A stretch of 64,000 nt of DNA, taken from assembly GCA_024635795.1 (NCBI GenBank), contig JAGXIH010000020.1, positions 124,001-188,000 on the forward strand, given 5' to 3'. The position numbers and the translations under genes were made by a program. The notes below the pieces were generated by a model. It saw only the letters and a list, made by a program, of their open reading frames with translations, did no database searches and was not told the origin of the DNA. Shown piece after piece: positions 39,673-54,430 of the stretch. Every line of letters begins with the position of its first letter. Position 1 is the stretch's first letter. The stretch comes from Salegentibacter sp. (GTDB lineage Bacteria; Bacteroidota; Bacteroidia; Flavobacteriales; Flavobacteriaceae).

Positions 39673-41031
39673 TTAAGCTTTAACATAAACAGTTTTCTTA
39701 TTAACAAATTCCATCATTCCTTCTTTTGCTAACTCGCGTCCGTAGCCCGATCGCTTAGTTCCACCAAAGGGAAGTCTGGGATCAGATTTTACCAGCTCAT
39801 TAACGAAATAAGCGCCATCACTCACGCTGCCGGCCATCTCCATAGCTTTTTCGACATCTTTTGTACAGACCGTAGTTCCCAGACCAAATTTTGATTTTTC
39901 TGAAAGTTCAAAAGCTTCCTCAATATTTTTTGCTTTGATCATTGCTGCAAGTGGTCCAAAGGTTTCTTCATCGAAAGCCGGCATACCCGGTTTTACATTT
40001 CCGAGGATGGTAGGCTGGTGGAAACATTCGTTCTGTTCGCCGCCGAGTAATAACTCAGCTCCCTGTTCCACAGACCTTTTAACCTGGCTTTGAAGTTGAT
40101 CTGCCAAATCCTTTCGGGCAAGCGGACCTACCTGGGTAGTATCATCCATAATATCGCCTGCTTTTAATTCGCTGACTGCTGTATTGAATTTAGAAACAAA
40201 TTCATCGTAAATTCCTTCCAGTAAAATAAAACGTTTCGCAGCGATACAGCTTTGTCCGCAGTTTAGCATTCTGGCAGAAACCGCTGTTTTTACAGCCCGA
40301 TCTATATCGGCATCTTCCCAAACTATAAAGGAATTATTTCCGCCTAATTCCAGTAAACTCTTTTTTATATACTTCCCGGAAAGTTGAGCCACCGCCGATC
40401 CTGCAGCTTCACTTCCCGTTAAGGTAACTGCCTGAACTGCATCGTGAGCAATAATCATTTCGGTTTGATCGTGATGTACAATTAAATTCTGAAATACACC
40501 TTTTGGATATCCTGCTTTTTCAAAAACCTCTTCAATCTTTAAAGCACAGCCAAAAACATTTGGAGCGTGTTTTAAAATTCCGGTATTTCCTGCGGTAAGT
40601 GTAGGCGCAGCAAACCTAAAAACCTGCCAGAATGGAAAATTCCAGGGCATAATTGCAAAAACACTTCCTATAGGATCGTGCCTAACATAGCTATGGGTGG
40701 CATCCGTTTTTATCTCTTCCGGAGCAAGAAATTCTACAGCATTTTCAGCATAATAATCACAAACCCAGGCGCATTTATTGACTTCCGCCCTTGATTCAGA
40801 AATTGGTTTTCCCATTTCCTGAGTGATCATTTGCGCATACTCTTCAACATTATCCCTTAATATCTGCGCGGCTTTTTTTAAAAGTCCGGTTCTTGAAGAA
40901 AGAGATGTCTTGCTCCAGTCTTTAAAAACTTCTCCCGATAGGTCTAAAACCTTTTTAGTTTCTTCCGTGGTTTGCGCGGTATACTTTCCAACTTGTTCTC
41001 CGTTATAGGGGTTTGTGCTATAAAATTCCAT
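39673..41031 (-). CDS. sad: NAD(P)-dependent succinate-semialdehyde dehydrogenase (Sad/YneI type)
   Basis: Oxidises succinate semialdehyde, or a related omega-acid aldehyde, to the acid. The 452-residue aldehyde dehydrogenase has cofactor region IMPWNFPFWQVFRF and LKHAPNVFGCALKIEEVF, general base Glu in LELGGNNSFIVWEDADID, and nucleophile Cys in NCGQSCIAAKRFIL. LKHAPNV and MTREMGKPI-like MITQEMGKPISESRAEV place it with E. coli Sad (YneI) rather than GabD. It follows the strong terminator that closes the upstream amine-type operon, so it may be transcribed separately, but its reaction fits downstream of the GABA-type transaminase at 48602. Confidence 0.9.
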   Translation of the reverse strand: MEFYSTNPYNGEQVGKYTAQTTEETKKVLDLSGEVFKDWSKTSLSSRTGLLKKAAQILRDNVEEYAQMITQEMGKPISESRAEVNKCAWVCDYYAENAVEFLAPEEIKTDATHSYVRHDPIGSVFAIMPWNFPFWQVFRFAAPTLTAGNTGILKHAPNVFGCALKIEEVFEKAGYPKGVFQNLIVHHDQTEMIIAHDAVQAVTLTGSEAAGSAVAQLSGKYIKKSLLELGGNNSFIVWEDADIDRAVKTAVSARMLNCGQSCIAAKRFILLEGIYDEFVSKFNTAVSELKAGDIMDDTTQVGPLARKDLADQLQSQVKRSVEQGAELLLGGEQNECFHQPTILGNVKPGMPAFDEETFGPLAAMIKAKNIEEAFELSEKSKFGLGTTVCTKDVEKAMEMAGSVSDGAYFVNELVKSDPRLPFGGTKRSGYGRELAKEGMMEFVNKKTVYVKA

Positions 41032-41085
41032 TGTGTTTTATTTTTTAATGACTATTGAATTAGGAATGAAAATAAGGAACTAACT

Positions 41086-41140
41086 AAAAAAACCTGGTGT
41101 AATAAATAATAGCAAAATCCATTATTTATAACACCAGGTT
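41086..41140 (-). terminator. terminator closing the C45/ATP-grasp/decarboxylase operon
   Basis: Two 20-nt arms (41091-41110 and 41121-41140) pair with one mismatch around a 10-nt loop. The A-run 41086-41092 is a U tract on the minus-strand RNA. The C45 gene stops at 41175, so this marks the end of the upstream operon and separates it from sad. Confidence 0.88.
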
Positions 41141-41174
41141 CTATAGGAATATATTTAAAATCAAGAAATAGAAA

Positions 41175-42425
41175 TTAACTCCTCCAGGAATCGGCATATC
41201 CTGTTCCCATTTTACTCCAGAAACCGGCTACGGCTTGCCAGGAGACTTCTCCATTATTAATTATTTTTCCTCTTAATTTTTCAAGCTCCTTATCGTTTGT
41301 TGATGGGTGGGCTTGAGCCATGGCATTTACCATAATTTCGGTAACAGTTTCCTGCCAATCTACATTTTCAGCATATTGCTCTTCGAATGGATCTTCCAGC
41401 GTTTGGGCTATTGCTACATTTTCCTGATTCCTCCATCCAGTTGCAACCTCAACTTGTTCATAATTTACAAGCTTATATACTTCCTGGAAGTTTTCGAAAG
41501 TTTGTGCTACAGAAGTACCCGGCCAGCGAAGTTCTACTTTGCCTTCTAACGGACGGTATACTGAAGTAAACAAGGTTCCAAAACCTTCCTTGAATTTAGT
41601 ATTGTAAAGAGGAGCTTTTAGAAAAGCATCTGCTACCTGGGTGGAATCAACTCTTTTCGCTGATAACATTTTATTCAGAAAAGAAGAACGTTCCTGGGTT
41701 TTATTAAAAGCAGCATTTTCCGGCCAGTCTATTGACCCCTGATGATTTGTAGTAAAAGAAGCATCGGTAACCACTGGATTTTTATCCGGCGCCAGCTGTA
41801 CCGTTTTGAATTTTCCGGTTTTATCTACCACGGTAACGTTGTAAGACATATGCGAAGGAATCCTGATTAAAGCCGCTACAGCTTCATCAACATTACTGCA
41901 AAATTCTAAAACGTAACGTAAAATAAACGGAATACCAAAGCCTACCCCGACCTCTTTTCGACCTCCAAAAGTGAGCGAAATGGCCAGGCCGTCTTCGTTC
42001 ATGCCGTCTACTGCTCCAATAAGACAATCGCTGGTGGCGATTACTTTTTTATTATTCCAGGAGGAGAGGAATTGTGTCCCTTCCATAAGGTCTGGATGAA
42101 AATCATAATTTCTAACCAGCTGAATATCCTCTCCCGTAGTAACCGCCTGTGAGCAACCACTAATGTAAGCAGGAGGTTGAAAGCCCGTTAAAAAACGTGC
42201 GGCAGCTTTATCTCCTTTTGCTAGTTTGCATAAGCGTTGATAGGTAGGCCACATCTCTGGCATATATTTTCTAAGTGCTACCTGAGAGGTTTTAAGATCT
42301 GGATAATTAGCTGTTCCTTTAGAATTAAGCCAGCTTTTATAAGCCGGCCAGTGAGTTTTATATAATTTCCGCCATTTAGCTCCCGGTTTGCCGGGTTCAG
42401 AAATAGCATTGAAATCTAATTGCAT
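41175..42425 (-). CDS. C45-family autoproteolytic Ntn acyltransferase/hydrolase
   Basis: A 416-residue Ntn-hydrolase related to isopenicillin acyl-CoA:6-APA acyltransferase. It should cut itself between Gly90 and Cys91 (PPAYISGCSQAV), exposing Cys91 as nucleophile. The following family motif is VRNYDFHPDLMEG, the equivalent of the usual ARNxDxx. Further family marks are IGAVDGMNEDGLAISL and TTNHQGSIDWPE. Such enzymes form or cleave amides between an acyl group and an amine. No signal peptide, so cytoplasmic. It is the last gene of the minus-strand operon, 84 nt after the ATP-grasp gene and just before the terminator. Amide cleavage or formation on the ligase product is inferred. Confidence 0.82.
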   Translation of the reverse strand: MQLDFNAISEPGKPGAKWRKLYKTHWPAYKSWLNSKGTANYPDLKTSQVALRKYMPEMWPTYQRLCKLAKGDKAAARFLTGFQPPAYISGCSQAVTTGEDIQLVRNYDFHPDLMEGTQFLSSWNNKKVIATSDCLIGAVDGMNEDGLAISLTFGGRKEVGVGFGIPFILRYVLEFCSNVDEAVAALIRIPSHMSYNVTVVDKTGKFKTVQLAPDKNPVVTDASFTTNHQGSIDWPENAAFNKTQERSSFLNKMLSAKRVDSTQVADAFLKAPLYNTKFKEGFGTLFTSVYRPLEGKVELRWPGTSVAQTFENFQEVYKLVNYEQVEVATGWRNQENVAIAQTLEDPFEEQYAENVDWQETVTEIMVNAMAQAHPSTNDKELEKLRGKIINNGEVSWQAVAGFWSKMGTGYADSWRS

Positions 42426-42509
42426 TTAGTATAGGTTTAAATAGTTGCTTGTTTTCTAGGGGTGGCAAAGTAGTTTTAATTCCTTTTACCCCTTCAGAAT
42501 ACCAGCATA

Positions 42510-44300
42510 TTATTTAGTTAAAGTTCCTGATAATTTTGGCTTCTTCTTATCTTCTACCATTTCAGAAGTATACTGTGCCCGAATAGCTTTGATCCAGTGC
42601 TTAGCCCTGTTATTCAGCTTAAAATCATCGGTCATCATACGGCCACGACTTACCAAAATTCCCATATCTGCTCCTTCATAGAGGTAGTCCCCTTTTCTGC
42701 AAATTCTTAGGAAAAAGGCTTCATTTTCATTCTCAACTGCCCTACGGTGAGTATCCATCCTATCAAATTGTATATGACCGGTATCATACATTCTGTAGAT
42801 ACCTGATTTTGGTGCTTTAGTCACGTATTCTATGGTGTCTTCCGTATGTTTTATGATTAGCTGGCTCCATCCATCAATATTTTCCTGGCGAGCCCAACGA
42901 TTATTGATAGCCTCAATATCAAGGTCGTAATCGATATCCATCCATTCCAGAATATGGAAAACGAATAATGGTGCATCGGCAAGGGCAAAAACAGCGTGGT
43001 TTGTTATGGAACTTGCCCCGGTAACCCGCGGATTCAATTCCCCTAAATAGATCTCTCCGTTATCCTGGTCTATTAAGAAATCAAGTTCAAAATAACCTTT
43101 ATAACCTTCTTCCCTCAATTGATTTCCAAACAATTGGGTATATTCTATAGCCTTTTCCCTTAACTCCGGAGTAAAGGCATTGGGATAGATCTCGTTTCCG
43201 CACCATCCACCTTCGTAAGGAGTAAGTTCTTTAAAACCTACCAGTTCTGTCATTAGCGGAGCCACAATCGTTCCGTGCCTGGTAACACAAGCTTCAATGG
43301 CAGAACCCCTGCAGCGAATACGCTTCATCACTTTAACTTCCTCTTCTTTCTCGATCTCTTCAGCATGTTTTTGGTATTCTTCTTTATTCGAAATAAAGAA
43401 GGTAGTATGCCCAGAATCACCAAAAGGAGTTTGGATAACCAATTCGTTTCCAAGGTGTTTAGAAACCTCTCTTAGATGCTCGTAATTATCTACTTTAGTC
43501 AGCACATAAGGCACACAGGCCACTCCTGCCTTTTCTGCAATCCGGTTGGTGTTTACTTTATTATCCAGGAAAGTTCGCATTTCGGCTTTTGGAAACATAA
43601 TTTCCAGCCCAAGTTTTTCTGCAAGTTCTTCTGTTTTCTCATTAAACATAAGGAACATCGCTTTACCGGATCTACCGTCTATAGATCTGGTTTTTAGATA
43701 ATCCTGAACTTCGGGATGTTGTAACAGATAATTATTTATATCCTCAATGCCTTCAAAATCATCGTGTGGTATCTCTGTTTTTGGAGAAAATACATTGGGA
43801 TGAAGGCCGTCAAAACATTCGATATGGGTAATAAATTTAAATCCTTTTATCCATTCGTCGGCTCCCAAAAGATTGAAGTTTGTAGCACTTATAAAGTACA
43901 GAGGCTCCTCATTTTTATGAAAAGATCTTCTTATGTCTGAAACTCCGCTAAGTTTAGACTTTCCTCCTTTTTGAATGGAGGCACTTCCCGAAACTTTGGT
44001 ATTTTTTGCCTTTTTAACTCCAACTACCTTTTTGCTTTTAGTCGTTTTCGTCTTTTTATCTTCGGAAACTTTAGGAGCTTTTTTCTTTTTATTAGCTGAA
44101 GAAGCAGGAGCCTTCCCTTGCTGCGCAGTAGAATCTGAAGGCACAGATTTCTTTCCTTTTAAAGGTTTTTCTTCTGTAACCTTTAATTTTCTGTCCTTTT
44201 TAGCACTGCGTTCCGGGGATACCGGTTCTTTTTTTGCAGCGGTTTTCTTTTTATTAGCTGCTCCCTTATTTTTGGAAGCTTTTGGTTTCTTAGATTCCAT
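42510..44300 (-). CDS. ATP-grasp ligase with histone-H1-like lysine-rich N-terminal tail
   Basis: A 596-residue protein in two unlike parts. Residues 1-118 are low-complexity and strongly basic (37 Lys, with Ala, Ser, Pro, Thr), like bacterial histone-H1-type tails. From about 130 a biotin-carboxylase-like ATP-grasp enzyme begins: a pre-ATP domain (EEPLYFISATNFNLLGADEW), the nucleotide-binding part with TPFGDSGHTTFFIS, and the Mg site in GYFELDFLID and YLGELNPRVTGASS. Such ligases join a carboxylate to an amine or thiol through an acyl phosphate; no biotin domain is present. Substrates are unknown. It follows the decarboxylase by 12 nt in one operon, suggesting its amine substrate comes from there. 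The tail could bind polyanions such as nucleic acid or polyphosphate, or be a localisation signal. Confidence 0.85.
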   Translation of the reverse strand: MESKKPKASKNKGAANKKKTAAKKEPVSPERSAKKDRKLKVTEEKPLKGKKSVPSDSTAQQGKAPASSANKKKKAPKVSEDKKTKTTKSKKVVGVKKAKNTKVSGSASIQKGGKSKLSGVSDIRRSFHKNEEPLYFISATNFNLLGADEWIKGFKFITHIECFDGLHPNVFSPKTEIPHDDFEGIEDINNYLLQHPEVQDYLKTRSIDGRSGKAMFLMFNEKTEELAEKLGLEIMFPKAEMRTFLDNKVNTNRIAEKAGVACVPYVLTKVDNYEHLREVSKHLGNELVIQTPFGDSGHTTFFISNKEEYQKHAEEIEKEEEVKVMKRIRCRGSAIEACVTRHGTIVAPLMTELVGFKELTPYEGGWCGNEIYPNAFTPELREKAIEYTQLFGNQLREEGYKGYFELDFLIDQDNGEIYLGELNPRVTGASSITNHAVFALADAPLFVFHILEWMDIDYDLDIEAINNRWARQENIDGWSQLIIKHTEDTIEYVTKAPKSGIYRMYDTGHIQFDRMDTHRRAVENENEAFFLRICRKGDYLYEGADMGILVSRGRMMTDDFKLNNRAKHWIKAIRAQYTSEMVEDKKKPKLSGTLTK

Positions 44301-44312
44301 AATTTTAATTTT

Positions 44313-47060
44313 TTAAGTTAGTGATTTTTTTTTCGCATTATTTCCCATAGAGCCCATCGAACTCACTGTTTTTTGGCGGTTTAGCACATTATCTTTAAAA
44401 ACTCTTAGACCGAGATCTGCCCGGTAGCCGTGAATTTCAGATACATCCAGTGCATTAAGGAACCGTATTATCTCTTTACTTACTACCTGTCCCGGCACAA
44501 GCACGGGAAATCCCGGTGGATAAGGGATTATAAAAGATGAAGCTACCAGGATCCTGTTATCTTCCATTGCCGGCAAACATTCCATTAGCGGCATATATTC
44601 ATAATTCTCTTCATTGTAAGCGAGAAAAAATGCTTCTCTTATGTTTCCGCCCGGAACTCCGGGAACTGCCTGAAAGGAATGATGGAAATAACTAAAATCA
44701 GGCAATGGCGGAAAGTCTTCGGTTAAAGATTTGATGCGTTCATTACGGTTCTTAGCCTCTTTTTGACTAAGAGATTTAAATTCCTGGTCCAATTCATCGG
44801 CAATCTTTAATAATGCGTTGGTTAAATAAGTTACACTTCCCCTGGTGGTCCCAATATTCGTCATAAACAAAACCGTATTTCGGGAGGTTTTATTGATCTG
44901 AATATTGAATTTATCCATGAGGTATTTATTCTTAAAGGTATCCCCATCTACTCCTGTCCTTCCAATATGCAAAGTGATCTTTGTTGGATCTAATACAAAT
45001 TCATCCTGCTCCCAGGCTGTTTCCATCCTGTTCCAACCTTCCTTGGAATTATAATATTCTTTTATACCCGATTTCCGGTGTTGTTCCGGGATAAAATTGC
45101 TTATAGTCAATACATCAAAATACTTTTTCAATTTGGGATGATCGTTGACTTTAGCTCTTAAAACCATCGCCAGTTCGATGCTTTTTTCAACCAACTCATA
45201 ACCTTCAAATTGCACCTGCCTTCTTCCAACATCCAGGGAAGCCAGCATTTGATAATTAGGAGAGGTTGAAGTATGCGTCATATAGGCTTCCATAAAGGTA
45301 TTCTCACTTTTTTTACGGAAATCCTCGTCCCAGATATGTATCATAGAACCCTGGCGGAAACTACTGAGGGTTTTATGGGTACTCTGCGTAGAATACACCC
45401 GAATTCGCACCTCATCTGGATTTGGTAGAACAGGAATTTCATTCTTTTTAAGACCTTTTATATGAGCCTTGTATTCTTCACGGTAACTACTGCTTTGATA
45501 TTTATCAAAAAGTTTTTGAGCAACGAACATTCCCGTACGTTGTTTATAATTATAGGTAAAACCTGCAAATGCAAACCAGGCTTCATCCCACAAAAAAATC
45601 ATATCTGGCTTGATGGCCAGTACTTCCTGCATAACTTTTTCCACGTTATAAACTAACCCGTCAAAAGTGCAATTGGTTAGCAATAACATTTTAACCAGGC
45701 TTAACCTTCCTGCCTTTTTTAGTTGAAGTAACTTTTCTTTAATCTGCTCCAGAGGTACGGCGCCATACATAGAATACTCTTCTATAGGATAAGAATCCAG
45801 ATAAACCGGATAGGCCCCTGCCAGTACAAGTCCGTAATGATGTGATTTATGACAATCTCTGTCTATTAAGATCACATCTCCCGGTTTTACCAAAGCCTGC
45901 ACTACAATTTTGTTGGCGGTAGAAGTACCGTTAGTCACAAAAAAGGTATTTCTTGAACCATAGGCATCACTGGCCTTTTGCTGCGCTTTTTTCAGGGAAC
46001 CGGTTGGTTGTAATAAAGAATCCAATCCGCCGGTGGTAGAAGAAGTTTCCGCCAGAAACATATTTCTACCGTAAAAATTCCCAAAATCTTTAATCCATCT
46101 GGACTTAAACACCGAATTACCCCGCGAAATCGGCATCGCGTGAAATATTCCGGTAGGTTTTTTACTATAATCTTTTAAAGCTGAAAAAAACGGAGTTTCA
46201 TAGCGCTCGCTTATTCCCCTAATAATGGTAAGGTGCAACTCTTGCAGGTCTTCAGTTCGGTAAAATATTCTTCTGAAGGTCTTTAAGGTACTGTCTTTTA
46301 AATTCCCTAAAGCCGTATCGGTTACATAATAAGTATCCAGTTCGGGCCTGAATTTTTTCACCATAGTACCCAAAATTGGTCCCAGCTCCGTAGGTGATTT
46401 GGTAGCCAGATCCAATTTCAGGATATTCTGAATAAAAGGTTTTATCACCGGAGTGATCTTTTTTGAATGATACGGAGGTGCATAACGTATTACCACCGCC
46501 TGGATATTAAAATTAAACTGAAGCGCGATTAAAGCATCTTCAAAAGAACGCTGTACTACAATGCCATAAGCAAATTGTTCATTAGAAAGTCGCATTTCTT
46601 TTAGATCGTGCCTAAGTTTACTCTCTTCTGCCTGAGAAATATCCTCAACAAACATCACTTCAAAATAATTCTTTTTGGATACTTCAGAATATTCCCCTTT
46701 ATCGTTGAGCTCTACGCCTGGATCATCATCTTCCAAAAAATCAGGATTGCTTCTGTACCTGTCGCTTACCAGATTTTTTGTGATCTCCGCAATTTTATTG
46801 GAAAGTGCGGTATGCTCATGTCTTTCCAACATATCCCGAAACGAATCTATACAGGACAAGCCCGGAAACGCGAAAAAGCACTCTATACCTTCAAGATCCT
46901 TTAAAAGTTGCCGAAGATTCTTTGTATACAACTTTTCATTTTCTGATCCGCGAGGAGAAGAATAGAGTTTTGTAGACTCATTTTTTAAGTTATTCCAGGA
47001 TTCCACCCGAAGTTGAGCCATATTATAATAATGTGAACTGTCTATTTTTTTCTCTGGCAT
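44313..47060 (-). CDS. Orn/Lys/Arg-type PLP decarboxylase, long form
   Basis: A fold-type I PLP enzyme of the acid-inducible amino-acid decarboxylase group, about 915 residues, longer than the usual ~710-760. I place the start at the ATG at 47060 (MPEKKIDSSHYYN), 4 nt after the VOC gene; the frame from 47108 runs inside that gene. Residues up to about 290 contain a wing/receiver-like domain (YFEVMFVEDISQAEESKL and QAVVIRYAPPY). The catalytic domain has TNGTSTANKIVVQAL, HKSHHYG, Asp492 in FLWDEAWFAF and the PLP Lys563 in YSTQSTHKTLSSFRQGS. The C-terminal domain includes FPVLVPGQVVS. The substrate among Lys, Orn, Arg or another amino acid is undetermined. Its place between a VOC and an ATP-grasp gene suggests an amine-making step in a pathway. 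Confidence 0.88.
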   Translation of the reverse strand: MPEKKIDSSHYYNMAQLRVESWNNLKNESTKLYSSPRGSENEKLYTKNLRQLLKDLEGIECFFAFPGLSCIDSFRDMLERHEHTALSNKIAEITKNLVSDRYRSNPDFLEDDDPGVELNDKGEYSEVSKKNYFEVMFVEDISQAEESKLRHDLKEMRLSNEQFAYGIVVQRSFEDALIALQFNFNIQAVVIRYAPPYHSKKITPVIKPFIQNILKLDLATKSPTELGPILGTMVKKFRPELDTYYVTDTALGNLKDSTLKTFRRIFYRTEDLQELHLTIIRGISERYETPFFSALKDYSKKPTGIFHAMPISRGNSVFKSRWIKDFGNFYGRNMFLAETSSTTGGLDSLLQPTGSLKKAQQKASDAYGSRNTFFVTNGTSTANKIVVQALVKPGDVILIDRDCHKSHHYGLVLAGAYPVYLDSYPIEEYSMYGAVPLEQIKEKLLQLKKAGRLSLVKMLLLTNCTFDGLVYNVEKVMQEVLAIKPDMIFLWDEAWFAFAGFTYNYKQRTGMFVAQKLFDKYQSSSYREEYKAHIKGLKKNEIPVLPNPDEVRIRVYSTQSTHKTLSSFRQGSMIHIWDEDFRKKSENTFMEAYMTHTSTSPNYQMLASLDVGRRQVQFEGYELVEKSIELAMVLRAKVNDHPKLKKYFDVLTISNFIPEQHRKSGIKEYYNSKEGWNRMETAWEQDEFVLDPTKITLHIGRTGVDGDTFKNKYLMDKFNIQINKTSRNTVLFMTNIGTTRGSVTYLTNALLKIADELDQEFKSLSQKEAKNRNERIKSLTEDFPPLPDFSYFHHSFQAVPGVPGGNIREAFFLAYNEENYEYMPLMECLPAMEDNRILVASSFIIPYPPGFPVLVPGQVVSKEIIRFLNALDVSEIHGYRADLGLRVFKDNVLNRQKTVSSMGSMGNNAKKKSLT

Positions 47061-47064
47061 ATAA

Positions 47065-47472
47065 TTAATCTTTTGAATGTAAGGCAAGTTTATTTCCTTC
47101 AGAATCAATAAAAATGGCGAAATGTCCCGACTCCGGATTAATCAGGGTTTTGGTCATCACAATTCTTCCTCCGGCTGCTTCAACCCTATTTAAAACACGG
47201 TTTAGGTCTTTACCTGCATTAAGATAAAGCAGGGGACCTATTATACCGGGTATAGAATTTGGCCCTGTAACAATCGCTCCTCCAATACCCTTTTCAGCAG
47301 GGAAAAAAGCCATAGCATAATTTCCATCAAATTGAGTTTCCATATCTATCTTAAAGATGCGGTTATAAAAATCTACAGCCTGTTGAAAATTGATCGCAGG
47401 GATTTCAAACCAGCTTATAAAGTCCTTTACAGGTTGTTCTTCTTTTTGTTTCTTAGGTGATGTTCCTCCCAT
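47065..47472 (-). CDS. VOC-family (glyoxalase/bleomycin-resistance fold) protein
   Basis: A 135-residue protein with one vicinal-oxygen-chelate module: WFEIPAINFQQAVDFYNRIFKIDM, GIGGAIVTGPN, and GHFAIFIDSEGNKLALHSK. The fold pairs two beta-alpha-beta-beta-beta units and usually binds a divalent metal or a ligand. It begins with a short charged stretch (MGGTSPKKQKEEQP). Substrate unknown; in this setting it may bind or isomerise a pathway intermediate, or be an accessory protein. Spaced 15 nt after the C-N hydrolase and 4 nt before the decarboxylase, it is firmly inside the operon. Confidence 0.85.
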   Translation of the reverse strand: MGGTSPKKQKEEQPVKDFISWFEIPAINFQQAVDFYNRIFKIDMETQFDGNYAMAFFPAEKGIGGAIVTGPNSIPGIIGPLLYLNAGKDLNRVLNRVEAAGGRIVMTKTLINPESGHFAIFIDSEGNKLALHSKD

Positions 47473-47487
47473 AGTTCTGTTTTTTAA

Positions 47488-48420
47488 TTATCCTCCAAAT
47501 CCTTTATATCCTGTAGGATTAGCCGGTGGTTCGTATTCGTGTTCTTTCATTTTTAATTCTGCCAGGTTATCTAACCTTGTAGGCTTAATAAGCGGTCCCA
47601 GGGAATTAAGATATGGCAGTTGAGCCCCATGTTGGTAAATATTAAATTGACCTATATGATCTCTGAAACTTTTTAAAGGTTGTCCCAAACGTAACACCCC
47701 AAGCTCCCGACTTCTCCTCACCCGACTGATATTAAGTTCCAACGGAAATATTTCTTCATTACCTTCAGCCTGATAAATCACACGACCATCGGGTCCACAA
47801 ACCAGCGATCTTCCATTACCACCGGATTCGAGTCCGTTTACATCGAAGAAATAACACTGATTCACCGCCGCCATAGCCCTTACAATAGACAATTCAATAT
47901 CCCTGTCTATAGTTCCTGTCATGGTAGGATGCAAGATAACCTCTGCCCCCATCACTGCCAGTGTACGCACTGTTTCAGGAAACCACATATCATAACAAAC
48001 AGATATCCCAAATCTTGCAACTCCCGGCACATCAAAAACGCAGAAATCTGAACCCGGAGTCACTCCTACCTCATAAGGATAAAAAGGAAACATTTTTCTG
48101 TATCGTGTAACGATCTCTCCTTCAGGATTAATTACTGTTGCAGTGTTATAGATTTTACCTTCGCTTTTTTCGAATATAGAACCCGGTAATAACCAAACCT
48201 TATGTTTTTTGGCCATAGCCTGCATCTCCTTTTCAAATTCACCCGGAATTTCCTGCGCATAATGGGTTAAAGGGCCGTAGCCGCATAATTCACTAAAAAC
48301 CACCATGTCTACCCAAGGGTAAAGGCTCATGGTAATATCAAGCTTCAGCTTCATCATTTCCACATTGGAAACGACTGCAGAAACCTTCATTTGTATTCCT
48401 GCTATTGCAAATGGATTCAT
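47488..48420 (-). CDS. carbon-nitrogen hydrolase (nitrilase superfamily)
   Basis: A 310-residue amidase/carbamylase. The Glu-Lys-Cys triad is visible: FSELCGYGP (Glu), RKMFPFYPYE (Lys) and SVCYDMWFPETVR (Cys). CYDMWFPE resembles the CxDxWFPE of N-carbamoylputrescine and related amidases, but the rest does not identify a substrate. The C-terminal extension (about residues 260-310, QFNIYQHGAQLPYLNSLGP to NPTGYKGFGG) is not part of the core fold and is Pro/Gly-rich. First gene of the tightly spaced group 48420 to 42510; 181 nt separate it from the transaminase gene upstream. It could remove an acyl or carbamoyl protecting group. Confidence 0.86.
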   Translation of the reverse strand: MNPFAIAGIQMKVSAVVSNVEMMKLKLDITMSLYPWVDMVVFSELCGYGPLTHYAQEIPGEFEKEMQAMAKKHKVWLLPGSIFEKSEGKIYNTATVINPEGEIVTRYRKMFPFYPYEVGVTPGSDFCVFDVPGVARFGISVCYDMWFPETVRTLAVMGAEVILHPTMTGTIDRDIELSIVRAMAAVNQCYFFDVNGLESGGNGRSLVCGPDGRVIYQAEGNEEIFPLELNISRVRRSRELGVLRLGQPLKSFRDHIGQFNIYQHGAQLPYLNSLGPLIKPTRLDNLAELKMKEHEYEPPANPTGYKGFGG

Positions 48421-48549
48421 ATATTTTTTATTTCTTGTTATCCGCAGAAAATATTTCCCCGGATTCTTTTAATCGGTTTCTATCTTATTCTTTTAGAAAA
48501 CCTATCAATTAGTAATTTCATTAATTAATTTCACGACAAAATTGTCCAC

Positions 48550-48567
48550 AACATTCCATTGAATGTT
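48550..48567. promoter_or_regulatory. inverted repeat AACATTC-N4-GAATGTT upstream of the C-N hydrolase gene
   Basis: Perfect 7-bp arms (48550-48556 and 48561-48567) in the 181-bp gap before the hydrolase gene. Too weak for a terminator; possibly an operator. The rest of the gap shows no gene. Confidence 0.35.
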
Positions 48568-48601
48568 CCCCATAGAAGAACTTCAAGCTTTCCTATACAA
48601 C

Positions 48602-49909
48602 TTAAGTATGTTTTTTAATTTGGTCTTCCAGAATATCCAGACCTCTATTTAATTGCTCTTCGGTAATTACCAGTGGACACAAAATTCTTAATACATTTTT
48701 AAAGGTACCGGCGCTTATAAGAATCAGGCCTTCCTGGGCGCAAGCTTTCACGATCTTGTCGCAAAGCTCGGTATGGGGTTTTCCGGGATCGTTATCTTTT
48801 ATAAATTCTATCCCTATCATAGCTCCAAGTCCTCTTACATCACCAATTTCCGGACATTCCTTTCTGAAATCTTCCATCCGGTCTGTAATTATCTTACCTA
48901 TATATTTAGCACGCTCATTTAGCTTTTCATCCTTCATCAACTGGATGGTGGCCAAAGCTGCTGCGCAGCATACAGGACTGCCAATATAGGTGCCACCAAT
49001 AGTACCCGATGCCGCCGCATCCATAATTTCAGCTCTGCCAAGTACCGCTGCAATTGGAAGACCGGAGCCCATAGATTTGGCATAAGTACTAAGGTCGGGT
49101 TGCACCCCGTAGTGCTGCCAGCTGGCCCAATGTCCTGTGCGGCAAAATCCACTTTGAATCTCATCAAAAATTAGCAAAACACCGTGTTCATCACAAAAGG
49201 AGCGAAGGCCTTCCAGGTATTTTTGAGGAATAGGATTAAAACCGCCTTCTCCCTGAATTGGTTCAACAATAATAGCAGCAACGCTATTTATATCAACCAT
49301 ACTATGCGCACTTTCCCTAAGCCTTTTTAGCTCTGTTTCCACAAACTCCTCCATACTTTGTGTACCGTGATATTTGTAAAAATTCGGAAAAAGAATTCGG
49401 TATACTTCTGGAGCAAAAGGCCCGGAAGCAAATTTGTAGTTCACTTTACTGGTCAGGCTCATCCCCATCAATGTTCGCCCGTGATAAGCTTCTGTAAAAC
49501 AAATTACCGCAGGTCTTTTCGTAGCCTGTCGTGCAATTTTAATGGCATTTTCTACTGCCTCGGCGCCGGTGCTGATAAGCATCGCCTTTGTTTTTTCTCC
49601 GTGAGGAAGAATTTCAACAAGTTCTTCACAGAGTTTAATATAAGGTTCATAAGTAACCACATTAAAACTGGTATGGAGATACTTTTCTGCCTGTTCCTGA
49701 ATAGCCTTTACCACAGGTTCGGGACAATGGCCGGCATTTACAACACCTATCCCACCGGCAAAGTCTATATGTTCATTTCCGTCTACATCTGTAATTATTG
49801 CTCCTTTAGCCTCACTAACAGTGGCTGTATTAAAAATACCAACTCCGTTGGCTACAATGTTTTTTCTCCTATCAAGGAGCTGTTGAGATTTGGTTCGCTC
49901 TTCAGTCAT
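48602..49909 (-). CDS. gabT: class III aminotransferase, 4-aminobutyrate transaminase type
   Basis: Moves an omega-amino group to a keto acid, typically GABA plus 2-oxoglutarate to succinate semialdehyde plus glutamate. The 435-residue fold-type I PLP enzyme has GGIGVVNAGHCPEPVVKA, STGAEAVENAIKIARQAT, AYHGRTLMGMSLT, EPIQGEGGFNPIP, the Asp in LLIFDEIQSGFCRTG and the PLP Lys in TYAKSMGSGLPIAAVLG. These match GABA/5-aminovalerate/putrescine-type transaminases; the exact amine is not determinable. Same strand as, and directly upstream of, the C-N hydrolase operon. The Sad-type dehydrogenase at 39673 could take its aldehyde product. Confidence 0.9.
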   Translation of the reverse strand: MTEERTKSQQLLDRRKNIVANGVGIFNTATVSEAKGAIITDVDGNEHIDFAGGIGVVNAGHCPEPVVKAIQEQAEKYLHTSFNVVTYEPYIKLCEELVEILPHGEKTKAMLISTGAEAVENAIKIARQATKRPAVICFTEAYHGRTLMGMSLTSKVNYKFASGPFAPEVYRILFPNFYKYHGTQSMEEFVETELKRLRESAHSMVDINSVAAIIVEPIQGEGGFNPIPQKYLEGLRSFCDEHGVLLIFDEIQSGFCRTGHWASWQHYGVQPDLSTYAKSMGSGLPIAAVLGRAEIMDAAASGTIGGTYIGSPVCCAAALATIQLMKDEKLNERAKYIGKIITDRMEDFRKECPEIGDVRGLGAMIGIEFIKDNDPGKPHTELCDKIVKACAQEGLILISAGTFKNVLRILCPLVITEEQLNRGLDILEDQIKKHT

Positions 49910-50291: not shown

Positions 50292-50750
50292 TTAAAGGTC
50301 TATTGCGGTGGTATTCTTAACCTTTTCTATAGTAAAGGTACTCTGTGTACTGCCAATATGATCCAGGGTGGTGAGTTTGGTAACCATAAATTCTCTGTAA
50401 GCTGCCATATCTTCCACCAGAACTTTTAAGATATAATCATATTCACCGCTCACGTGGAAACATTCCAGAACCTCGGGCAGGCTCGTGACTTCAGCTTCAA
50501 AACGGGTAAGATAATTTTTGGTATGCTGAATAAGTTTTATCTGGCAAAAAACCGTAAAGGATTTATCAACTTTATCAGGATTTAACAGGGCAACATATTT
50601 TGAGATTACCCCTTCCCTTTCCAGGCGCTTGATGCGTTCATAGACCGCAGTTATTGACAGATCCAATTTCACGGAAATCTCCTTATTCGTCATTTTGCTA
50701 TCCCGTTGCAAATGCTTTAGGATCTGAAGGTCCTTTTTATCAAGTTTCAT
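50292..50750 (-). CDS. Lrp/AsnC-family transcriptional regulator
   Basis: A 152-residue regulator: an N-terminal winged helix-turn-helix (KDLQILKHLQRDSKMTNKEIS, then LDLSITAVYERIKRLEREGVI) and a C-terminal RAM ligand-binding domain (KSFTVFCQIKLIQHTKNYL to TLDHIGSTQSTFTIEKV). It starts at the ATG at 50750 and is divergent from the Cys/Met-type PLP enzyme gene with a 160-bp shared region, so that gene is the likely target. The amine-type island on the other side is a second possible target. The effector is probably an amino acid (family knowledge). Confidence 0.93.
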   Translation of the reverse strand: MKLDKKDLQILKHLQRDSKMTNKEISVKLDLSITAVYERIKRLEREGVISKYVALLNPDKVDKSFTVFCQIKLIQHTKNYLTRFEAEVTSLPEVLECFHVSGEYDYILKVLVEDMAAYREFMVTKLTTLDHIGSTQSTFTIEKVKNTTAIDL

Positions 50751-52951: not shown

Positions 52952-54430
52952 ATGGAAAACGAATCTACCAGCCCTCAGGATGAACAAATTGTTGAAAACA
53001 GAGAATTAAATATTTGGGAAGCATTAATCCCGGTTTTCGCCCTGGTAGCGATGCTCGCCTTTAATGTTTATGTATTCGGGGATGACGCTCTTAGCGGTTC
53101 CAATCAATTTATTCTTCTACTCGGCGGCGCAGTTGCAGCTATTGTTGGTTACTTCAATAATACGAAGTATGATAAAATGATAGATGAGGTTGCTTCTAAT
53201 ATTCAGAGCACTGCGGGAGCTATCCTTATTCTTCTCATGGTTGGGGCACTGGCCGGGACCTGGCTTATTTCCGGAATTATACCCACCATGATCTATTATG
53301 GTTTACAAATCTTAAATCCTACAATTTTTCTTGCGGCTTGCGTCGTAATCTGTTCGGTGATCTCGGTAGCAACCGGGAGTAGCTGGACTACATCGGCGAC
53401 GGTTGGTATTGCTTTAATTGGTATTGCTGAAGCTTTAGGGATCTCTGTAGGAATGACCGCAGGGGCCATCCTTTCAGGGGCGTATTTTGGAGATAAATTG
53501 TCCCCTTTAAGCGATACTACTAACCTTGCACCGGCAATGGCAGGAACCGATCTCTTTACACATATACGGTATATGACCCTTACCACCGTACCAACAATTC
53601 TTATTACAATTATAGTGTTTGTAATTATTGGCTTAAACCTGGAACCTACAGGAATAACCGACACCTCCTCCATTCTTAAGTCCATAGAAAATTCCTTTAC
53701 GATTTCCCCCTGGCTTTTTGTGGTACCTCTTCTGGTAATCCTTTTGATCGTTAAAAAGATTTCTCCACTTATTGCCCTTTTACTGGGAACTCTCTTGGGG
53801 GCAGCCGCCGCCCTAATTTTCCAGCCTGGGGTAGTAGTTCAAATTGCAGGTACTAATGATCTTACCTTTATAAGTGGTTATAAAGGAGTAATGCAGGCCA
53901 TTACCGTTGATACTTCCGTTCAAACCGATAACGAAAACCTTAACGACCTGTTTTCTTCAGGAGGTATGGCAGGAATGCTGGGAACCATCTGGCTTATCAT
54001 TTGCGCGATGGTCTTTGGCGGAATTATGGATGCTATTGGTGCCCTTGCGCGCATAAGTAAAGCTTTGCTGAATTTATTCCATACCACATTCGGGCTTTTT
54101 GCAAGTACGGTTTTCAGCTGTCTTGCCCTTAACGCTACCGCTTCAGATCAATACCTGGCTATTGTGGTTCCCGGAAAAATGTTTGCAAAAGCCTATAGGG
54201 ATAAGGGCCTTGCTCCTGAAAACCTTAGCCGTACGCTGGAAGATTCTGGTACGGTAACTTCAGTATTAGTGCCCTGGAATACCTGTGGAGCATATCACAG
54301 CGGGGTTCTGGGTGTACCGGTAGCTTCCTATTTCGGCTATGCGATCTTTAATTATTTGAGTCCGTTTATGACCCTCTTCTTCGCGGCTTTCGGAATCAAG
54401 ATCAAACAATTAAGAGAAAAATCAGCCTAA
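52952..54430 (+). CDS. Na+/H+ antiporter, NhaC family
   Basis: An inner-membrane protein of 492 residues with about 11-12 helices. The N-terminal cytoplasmic part is acidic (MENESTSPQDEQIVENREL). NhaC-family marks are VATGSSWTTSATVGIALIGI, GAILSGAYFGDKLSPLSDTTNLAP and the late motif LEDSGTVTSVLVPWNTCGAYHSGVLGVP. These carry the conserved Asp/Ser/Thr residues for ion exchange. It would export Na+ for protons, fitting a marine lifestyle and a cell that uses Na+-coupled sugar import. A minority of NhaC homologues exchange malate/lactate, so ion specificity is not certain. Single-gene unit. Confidence 0.92.
   Translation: MENESTSPQDEQIVENRELNIWEALIPVFALVAMLAFNVYVFGDDALSGSNQFILLLGGAVAAIVGYFNNTKYDKMIDEVASNIQSTAGAILILLMVGALAGTWLISGIIPTMIYYGLQILNPTIFLAACVVICSVISVATGSSWTTSATVGIALIGIAEALGISVGMTAGAILSGAYFGDKLSPLSDTTNLAPAMAGTDLFTHIRYMTLTTVPTILITIIVFVIIGLNLEPTGITDTSSILKSIENSFTISPWLFVVPLLVILLIVKKISPLIALLLGTLLGAAAALIFQPGVVVQIAGTNDLTFISGYKGVMQAITVDTSVQTDNENLNDLFSSGGMAGMLGTIWLIICAMVFGGIMDAIGALARISKALLNLFHTTFGLFASTVFSCLALNATASDQYLAIVVPGKMFAKAYRDKGLAPENLSRTLEDSGTVTSVLVPWNTCGAYHSGVLGVPVASYFGYAIFNYLSPFMTLFFAAFGIKIKQLREKSA

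What the first reader, a model, noticed from the sequence alone, without database searches (positions are those of the whole stretch)
39673..49909. Candidate undescribed amine/omega-amino-acid pathway: decarboxylase, ATP-grasp ligase, C45 Ntn enzyme, C-N hydrolase, VOC, GABA-type transaminase and Sad-type dehydrogenase
Seen: six minus-strand genes from 49909 to 41175 with tight spacing inside 48420-42510 (15, 4 and 12 nt) and a long hairpin terminator after the last, followed by sad. Known: each family alone has a clear chemistry (decarboxylation of a basic amino acid, ATP-driven amide formation, omega-transamination, aldehyde oxidation, amide hydrolysis). Inferred: in that order these are the same steps as the E. 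coli gamma-glutamyl-putrescine route (protect amine, deaminate, oxidise, deprotect, then GABA to succinate), but with non-homologous enzymes: ATP-grasp for the GS-like ligase and C45/nitrilase for the hydrolase. Alternatively the set makes an acylated amine product instead of degrading one.
Basis: partly seen in the sequence, partly recalled or inferred. Interest (0 to 1): 0.74.

Follow-up and report, generated by a model that had tools for sequence, protein, structure and literature searches.

The report
Conserved unexplained amino-acid-to-GABA operon
Seven neighbouring bacterial genes form a conserved enzyme unit that most likely turns an amino acid into GABA and then succinate through a chemically protected intermediate; the substrates of its two central enzymes are not yet assigned.

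Summary
In detail: six minus-strand genes (transaminase TA, C-N hydrolase NIT, VOC, decarboxylase DC, ATP-grasp ATPg, C45) at 49909-41175 with 15/4/12-nt gaps, a strong hairpin, then a Sad-like dehydrogenase (ALDH). The GABA-to-succinate tail is supported: TA scores 505.7 against the GABA-transaminase cut-off 506.65, and one locus fills the ALDH slot with a distant enzyme over the succinate-semialdehyde-dehydrogenase cut-off. The start is open: DC keeps the PLP machinery, but the Glu proposed to bind lysine's side chain is Asn in 84 of 84 rows; ATPg has a biotin-carboxylase/PurK/PylC-like fold without the carboxylase base. Best guess: ATPg acylates a basic amino acid's omega-amine, DC decarboxylates the conjugate, TA and ALDH oxidise it, NIT or C45 frees GABA. 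Paper listings showed no description of the set.

The parts
48602..49909 (-). TA: class III aminotransferase, close to GABA transaminase
   Evidence: TIGR00700 505.7 bits against cut-off 506.65; nine relatives scanned: six listed at 488.4-506.5, three not listed for that model at the E-value limit used, none over the cut-off; PLP Lys278 in 56 of 56 rows, Arg145 in 53 of 56 (2 gaps, 1 Val)
47488..48420 (-). NIT: carbon-nitrogen hydrolase (nitrilase superfamily), predicted amidase
   Evidence: PF00795 108 bits; Glu44, Lys109, Cys142 in 61, 62 and 61 of 62 rows, the rest gaps
47065..47472 (-). VOC: glyoxalase/VOC-fold protein, role unknown
   Evidence: PF00903 26.2 bits; in 55 of 65 loci with enough flank
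44313..47108 (-). DC: 931-aa (915 from the ATG at 47060) PLP decarboxylase of the Orn/Lys/Arg group, Rv2531c-like
   Evidence: PF01276 263 bits; PDB 9n0n/9n0o E about 1e-236; Lys579, His420, Asp508 aligned with CadA Lys367, His245, Asp330
42510..44300 (-). ATPg: ATP-grasp enzyme of family PRK06524 with a low-confidence basic N-terminal tail (about residues 1-113)
41175..42425 (-). C45: Ntn-type acyltransferase/amidohydrolase
   Evidence: NF040521 164.8 bits, cut-off 85; Cys91 in 64 of 64 rows
41084..41146 (-). hairpin with T run: terminator or attenuator between C45 and ALDH
   Evidence: z -5.0, 0 of 200 shuffles for 41032-41174; sequence
39673..41031 (-). ALDH: Sad/YneI-like aldehyde dehydrogenase
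   Evidence: NF006915 NADP-dependent SSADH 508.8 bits, cut-off 730; an ALDH is downstream of ATPg in 53 of 71 loci with enough flank, 15 of the 56 present in all being only 27-32% identical to it
50292..50750 (-). Lrp/AsnC regulator upstream, candidate controller
   Evidence: PF01037 80 bits; hits in the same place in seven loci titled Salegentibacter (5), Christiangramia and Gillisia

Best explanation
A catabolic operon that makes GABA, and from it succinate, out of an amino acid through an N-protected intermediate. Proposed order: ATPg uses ATP to acylate the omega-amine of a basic amino acid (ornithine best fits a four-carbon product); DC removes CO2 from that conjugate; TA turns the freed amine into an aldehyde; ALDH oxidises it; NIT (or C45, or an amidase-signature enzyme in some rhizobia) removes the acyl group to give GABA; TA and ALDH then take GABA to succinate. 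Shown: the gene set, its co-inheritance, intact catalytic residues, the changed base position in ATPg and the changed side-chain position in DC. Inferred: every substrate, the order of steps, the identity of the acyl group.
Against: TA and ALDH would have to act twice, or other copies must help. PylC is tied with biotin carboxylase and PurK, so the fold does not choose the substrate. Transporters scoring as GltP/DctA-like lie beside C45 in L050 and L097 and AspT stands beside orphan relatives of DC, which points to acidic substrates. AdiA has Thr where CadA has Glu, so plain arginine is not excluded. Six loci with room keep DC and ATPg without NIT or TA, four of them as VOC-DC-ATPg; L118 has TA but no NIT hit. 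Fourteen loci use ALDHs only 27-30% identical to the window's; four scanned are nearest lactaldehyde dehydrogenase.
Confidence: 0.33

Rival explanations
1. Ligate, decarboxylate, hydrolyse: ATPg joins the gamma-carboxylate of glutamate to an amine X, DC decarboxylates the gamma-glutamyl conjugate to GABA-X, NIT or C45 splits it to GABA + X, TA and ALDH give succinate. Each enzyme acts once and no step is missing. This is the logic of butirosin BtrJ/BtrK (recalled; one search found no paper on them in the library).
For: DC upstream of ATPg in 66 of 66 loci with enough flank; Asn739 and Arg743 suit an amide or carboxylate side chain; GltP/DctA-like symporter next to C45 in two loci, Glu dehydrogenase genes near three rhizobial copies.
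Against: From glutamate the net reaction is a costly GABA shunt unless X matters; ATPg stands without adjacent DC in Roseateles, Shinella, Sinorhizobium RAC02 and C. necator; X unknown.
Confidence: 0.22
2. Analogue of the DavBATD lysine route or the arginine-oxygenase route (recalled): DC gives a carboxamide (oxidative decarboxylation of Orn/Lys/Arg, or plain decarboxylation of glutamine), NIT hydrolyses it, TA and ALDH finish. ATPg and C45 serve a side branch.
For: DC, NIT, TA and ALDH form a gapless chain; the six loci with room that lack NIT are the six that lack TA; NIT has an intact amidase triad; L096 and L112 have an amidase-signature enzyme in the stretch.
Against: Leaves ATPg, the most constant partner of DC, without a role; carboxamide formation by this fold is not known to me; no O2-dependent feature was tested; L118 has TA without a NIT hit.
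Confidence: 0.15
3. Biosynthesis: DC and ATPg make an amide-linked small molecule (GABA or polyamine conjugate, an osmolyte or signal), C45 transfers acyl groups, and TA/ALDH/NIT recycle it.
For: Four loci are just VOC-DC-ATPg (L076, L081, L086, L090); the Pfam name of C45's family is an acyltransferase.
Against: Transporters in the annotated plasmid stretches that I read are mostly of substrate-binding ABC or permease type, and the GABA-degrading tail is kept in most loci.
Confidence: 0.15
4. ATPg is a biotin-dependent or free carboxylase acting on a guanidino, urea or amine group, as its legacy name 'biotin carboxylase' says.
For: Closest sequence and fold matches include biotin carboxylases; a urea-transporter-type gene stands divergently beside four minimal loci.
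Against: The BC Glu296 region is not kept in ATPg (role recalled); none of the seven proteins is a biotin carrier or carboxyltransferase and no further family is in more than 10 of 90 loci (the smaller ORF clusters were not all identified).
Confidence: 0.07

Closest known systems
E. coli Puu pathway (gamma-glutamylated putrescine to GABA)
   Same: amide ligase, aldehyde dehydrogenase, amide hydrolase and GABA-transaminase-like enzyme in one cluster (E. coli genes seen)
   Different: ligase is ATP-grasp, not glutamine-synthetase-like; hydrolase is nitrilase/C45, not PuuD; no amine oxidase among the seven; own decarboxylase and VOC
Rv2531c-type large decarboxylase (PDB 9n0o is Rv2531c per PMC12910592; 9n0n and 9n0p bear the same molecule name)
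   Same: DC aligns over residues 29-915, E about 1e-236
   Different: activity of Rv2531c not clarified (PMC12910592, passages); it reads Ile where DC has Arg743
E. coli CadA, SpeF, AdiA
   Same: catalytic Lys, His, Asp aligned
   Different: CadA Glu526 / SpeF Glu532 replaced by Asn739 (AdiA has Thr571); 23-27% identity; longer N-terminal region
PylC (ATP-grasp lysine-epsilon-N ligase)
   Different: 10% identity; tied with BC and PurK
Lysine DavBATD and arginine-to-4-guanidinobutyrate routes (recalled)
   Same: nitrilase-family amidase, GabT- and GabD-type steps; ketoarginine-route genes sit with ATPg/C45/NIT in Roseateles and Shinella
   Different: no flavin monooxygenase among the seven; ATP-grasp and C45 added

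Membership tests
E. coli Puu pathway | glutamine-synthetase-like ligase PuuA in the cluster | tested here: not met
   the only ligase-type protein among the seven is ATP-grasp PRK06524
E. coli Puu pathway | FAD amine oxidase PuuB in the cluster | tested here: not met
   none of the seven proteins has a DAO domain; the rest of the genome was not searched
E. coli Puu pathway | GABA transaminase PuuE | tested here: inconclusive
   TIGR00700 505.7 against 506.65; PRK09792 395.8 against 747
Orn/Lys/Arg decarboxylase group | PLP lysine and PLP-binding residues | tested here: met
Lysine or ornithine decarboxylase | acidic residue for the side-chain amine (CadA Glu526, SpeF Glu532) | tested here: not met
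   Asn in 84 of 84 rows with letters there, 2 gaps; role of Glu526 rests on docking and an older proposal cited in PMC5607190 (passages)
Biotin carboxylase | Glu296 bicarbonate base (recalled) | tested here: not met
   profile alignment with AccC ends at that motif, where ATPg has no Glu (A6)
Biotin carboxylase | fold | tested here: inconclusive
C45 family | family score and Cys at the autoproteolysis site | tested here: met
   NF040521 over cut-off; Cys91 64 of 64, preceded by Gly in 45 and Ala in 19; autoproteolysis itself not tested
Nitrilase superfamily | Glu-Lys-Cys triad | tested here: met
Succinate-semialdehyde dehydrogenase | curated score | tested here: inconclusive
   window ALDH under every cut-off shown (25 of 43 families); the L058 enzyme in the same slot over it
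Each family above | substrate turnover | not testable with these tools
   needs assays

The most novel reading that the evidence does not exclude
A new GABA-forming route in which a PylC-like ATP-grasp ligase first acylates an amino acid and an Rv2531c-type PLP enzyme decarboxylates the conjugate rather than a free amino acid. That would be a substrate class not assigned, as far as I know, to this decarboxylase fold, and would give the Rv2531c-like family its first function.
Probability: 0.35. Interest if true: 0.72.

Novelty: new variant of a known kind. Interest (0 to 1): 0.55.

Why it matters
The set is found in records titled Bacteroidota, Ignavibacteriota, Balneolota, Calditrichota and Gemmatimonadota, with related sets in Pseudomonadota, where I could search plasmid records only. 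For two of its proteins I found no described reaction: PRK06524, named 'biotin carboxylase' by NCBI, and the large decarboxylase family of Rv2531c, whose structure is solved but whose activity a 2026 review passage says was not clarified (PMC12910592). The operon supplies context: partner enzymes, a likely end product (GABA, succinate) and a short list of substrates to try.

Tried and rejected
Chance clustering: rejected by synteny and co-occurrence. Biotin carboxylase: disfavoured for lack of the base and of partners among the seven. Plain lysine/ornithine decarboxylase: weakened by Asn739. My first hand reading of where CadA Glu526 falls was wrong and was replaced by the column mapping. C45 as an obligatory deprotecting enzyme: rejected, 0 of 22 genomes behind 23 C45-less loci match at E <= 1e-10; that call itself warns that an empty answer needs a positive control, which is, where the same query rings in 4 genomes down to 40% identity; completeness of the 22 is not known.

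Led nowhere: seven paper searches on the gene set, its parts or analogous routes, of which I saw listings only; no listed title or abstract start describes the set. (a PDB code) hit an unrelated physics paper. Rv2531c search: 7 papers, passages of one read. Glu526 search: 2 papers, passages of one read. Promoter and terminator scans found no more sites than shuffles; tandem repeats unremarkable; no tRNA in the window. The five DC-bearing genomes each have an arginase-family gene, but so do 9 of 14 control genomes, so this says little. A structure of C45 was never obtained. Phylum labels on the ATPg tree need 4 changes where 3 is the least: compatible with transfer, no proof.

Of the plasmid records with a match (32 for ATPg, 38 for DC, 20 of each listed) I opened 15 stretches. 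Not all fit: S. meliloti ml66 (L094) has DC among transposases with no ATPg hit nearby, R. leguminosarum OyaliB (L093) has only a C45 fragment, Ensifer and Phyllobacterium have DC without ATPg.
Full report
What is there. The window lies in a 62%-complete, 1.98-Mb bin (G000) whose closest named relatives at this locus are Salegentibacter (ATPg 83-92% identical over the best segment). DC is listed from a TTG at 47108, but orthologues start at the residue aligned with the ATG at 47060, which gives the 4-nt gap to VOC.

Is it a unit? tblastn of the window proteins against them gives one common order, TA-NIT-(VOC)-DC-ATPg-(C45)-(ALDH), on one strand except one C45. Counting loci with enough flank: DC 66 of 66, NIT 57 of 63, TA 55 of 61, VOC 55 of 65, ALDH 53 of 71, C45 55 of 78; 36 of 80 carry all six besides VOC. 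DC is usually next to ATPg, but a permease stands between them in L064 and L067 and two other genes in L085 and L091. In 296 genomes sampled across the phylum, DC and NIT each occur in the same five, ATPg and C45 in four of the five; in the fifth, G192, the DC match is cut at its C-terminal side by a contig end. None of the four was found in the other 291 at the E-value limits used (1e-50, 1e-40, 1e-40, 1e-25). Distances of DC, ATPg, NIT, C45 and TA rise together (Mantel r 0.70 to 0.90, 0 of 2000 permutations for each of ten pairs); this reflects shared descent of the cluster and does not by itself show interaction. Patchy occurrence, presence in several phyla and on plasmids suggest transfer.

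What it produces. The tail is best supported. In the Saprospiraceae locus L058 the ALDH slot holds a protein 32% identical to the window's ALDH that scores 723.8 on the SSADH model (cut-off 646.35), and Roseobacter ponti has a gabT at 542.8 (cut-off 506.65) 2.7 kb upstream of NIT-DC-ATPg-C45. Against this, 14 other loci hold ALDHs 27-30% identical to the window's, of which four were scanned: all four are nearest to lactaldehyde dehydrogenase and under the cut-offs shown. 18 loci with room have no ALDH hit.

What it starts from. Neighbours in other bacteria disagree. Roseateles and Shinella hold NIT, ATPg and C45 without adjacent DC in a stretch with an Lrp regulator, an amino acid permease, an agmatinase-family enzyme, ketoarginine decarboxylase, an ALDH, a D-amino acid dehydrogenase and an alanine racemase that in Roseateles is fused to an arginase-family domain; Sinorhizobium RAC02 has the same layout read by eye (family scores run for Roseateles only). 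Roseateles has a DC elsewhere on the same plasmid. That is arginine chemistry leading towards GABA. Cupriavidus necator pBB1 has ABC-transporter genes of peptide type (by eye) followed by NIT-ATPg-C45, again without DC. R. leguminosarum WSM1689 (L096) and S. meliloti RU11/001 pSymA (L112) have DC-ATPg-C45, an ABC transporter and an amidase-signature enzyme. Persicitalea and C. oxalaticus have a GltP/DctA-like symporter beside C45, and orphan DC relatives stand beside the aspartate-alanine antiporter AspT in Ensifer and Phyllobacterium (scored in Ensifer). An amino acid permease forms an ORF cluster of four loci and stands between DC and ATPg in L064 and L067.

Mechanism. I commit, at about one in three, to: ATPg protects the omega-amine of a basic amino acid, DC decarboxylates the conjugate, TA and ALDH make the acid, NIT or C45 deprotects to GABA, TA and ALDH take GABA on. 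It explains the DC-ATPg pairing, the changed DC pocket, the ligase-plus-hydrolase pattern and the replacement of DC by a ketoarginine route in some Pseudomonadota. It does not explain VOC, the acidic-substrate transporters or the minimal VOC-DC-ATPg loci, and it uses TA and ALDH twice. The main rival (glutamyl ligation, decarboxylation, hydrolysis) uses each enzyme once and fits the acidic transporters, but needs an unknown amine and does not fit stretches without DC.

Novelty. The listings in an open-licence library showed no paper describing this gene set; most subscription journals are absent there, so this is weak evidence. The activity of Rv2531c, the nearest solved relative of DC, is stated as not clarified in a 2026 review (PMC12910592, passages). 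Families are known, the combination and its reaction are not: a new variant of a known kind, with a real chance of an unassigned decarboxylase substrate class.

Noticed in passing
L081:4268-6481 and similar ORFs in L076, L086, L090: A urea-transporter domain (PF03253) fused to a peptidase M23 domain stands divergently beside the minimal VOC-DC-ATPg loci (Pfam run on L081 only).
   Followed up: partly
L095:15798-17585: A 595-aa protein joins an alanine racemase N-terminal domain to an arginase-family domain, inside an arginine catabolic stretch.
   Followed up: partly
L098:8059-14522 and L115:7983-12502: A relative of the decarboxylase without ATPg is flanked on both sides (Ensifer) or followed (Phyllobacterium) by an AspT-type antiporter, suggesting a decarboxylation/antiport cycle.
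   Followed up: partly
window 42510-44300, residues 1-113 of the protein: The ATP-grasp enzyme carries a long Lys/Ser/Ala-rich, low-confidence N-terminal tail that is much shorter in L010 and L011.
   Followed up: no
L023:11598-14083 and L030:11606-13990: Brumimicrobium loci carry two C45 genes in tandem.
   Followed up: no
window 52952-54430: NhaC-type antiporter over its cut-off (390 against 370) that also matches the arginine/ornithine antiporter ArcD model (341 bits, cut-off 650).
   Followed up: no
L011:5623-6612 (genome G171): The C45 match there spans one in-frame TAA, so the gene may be shortened or interrupted in that genome.
   Followed up: no
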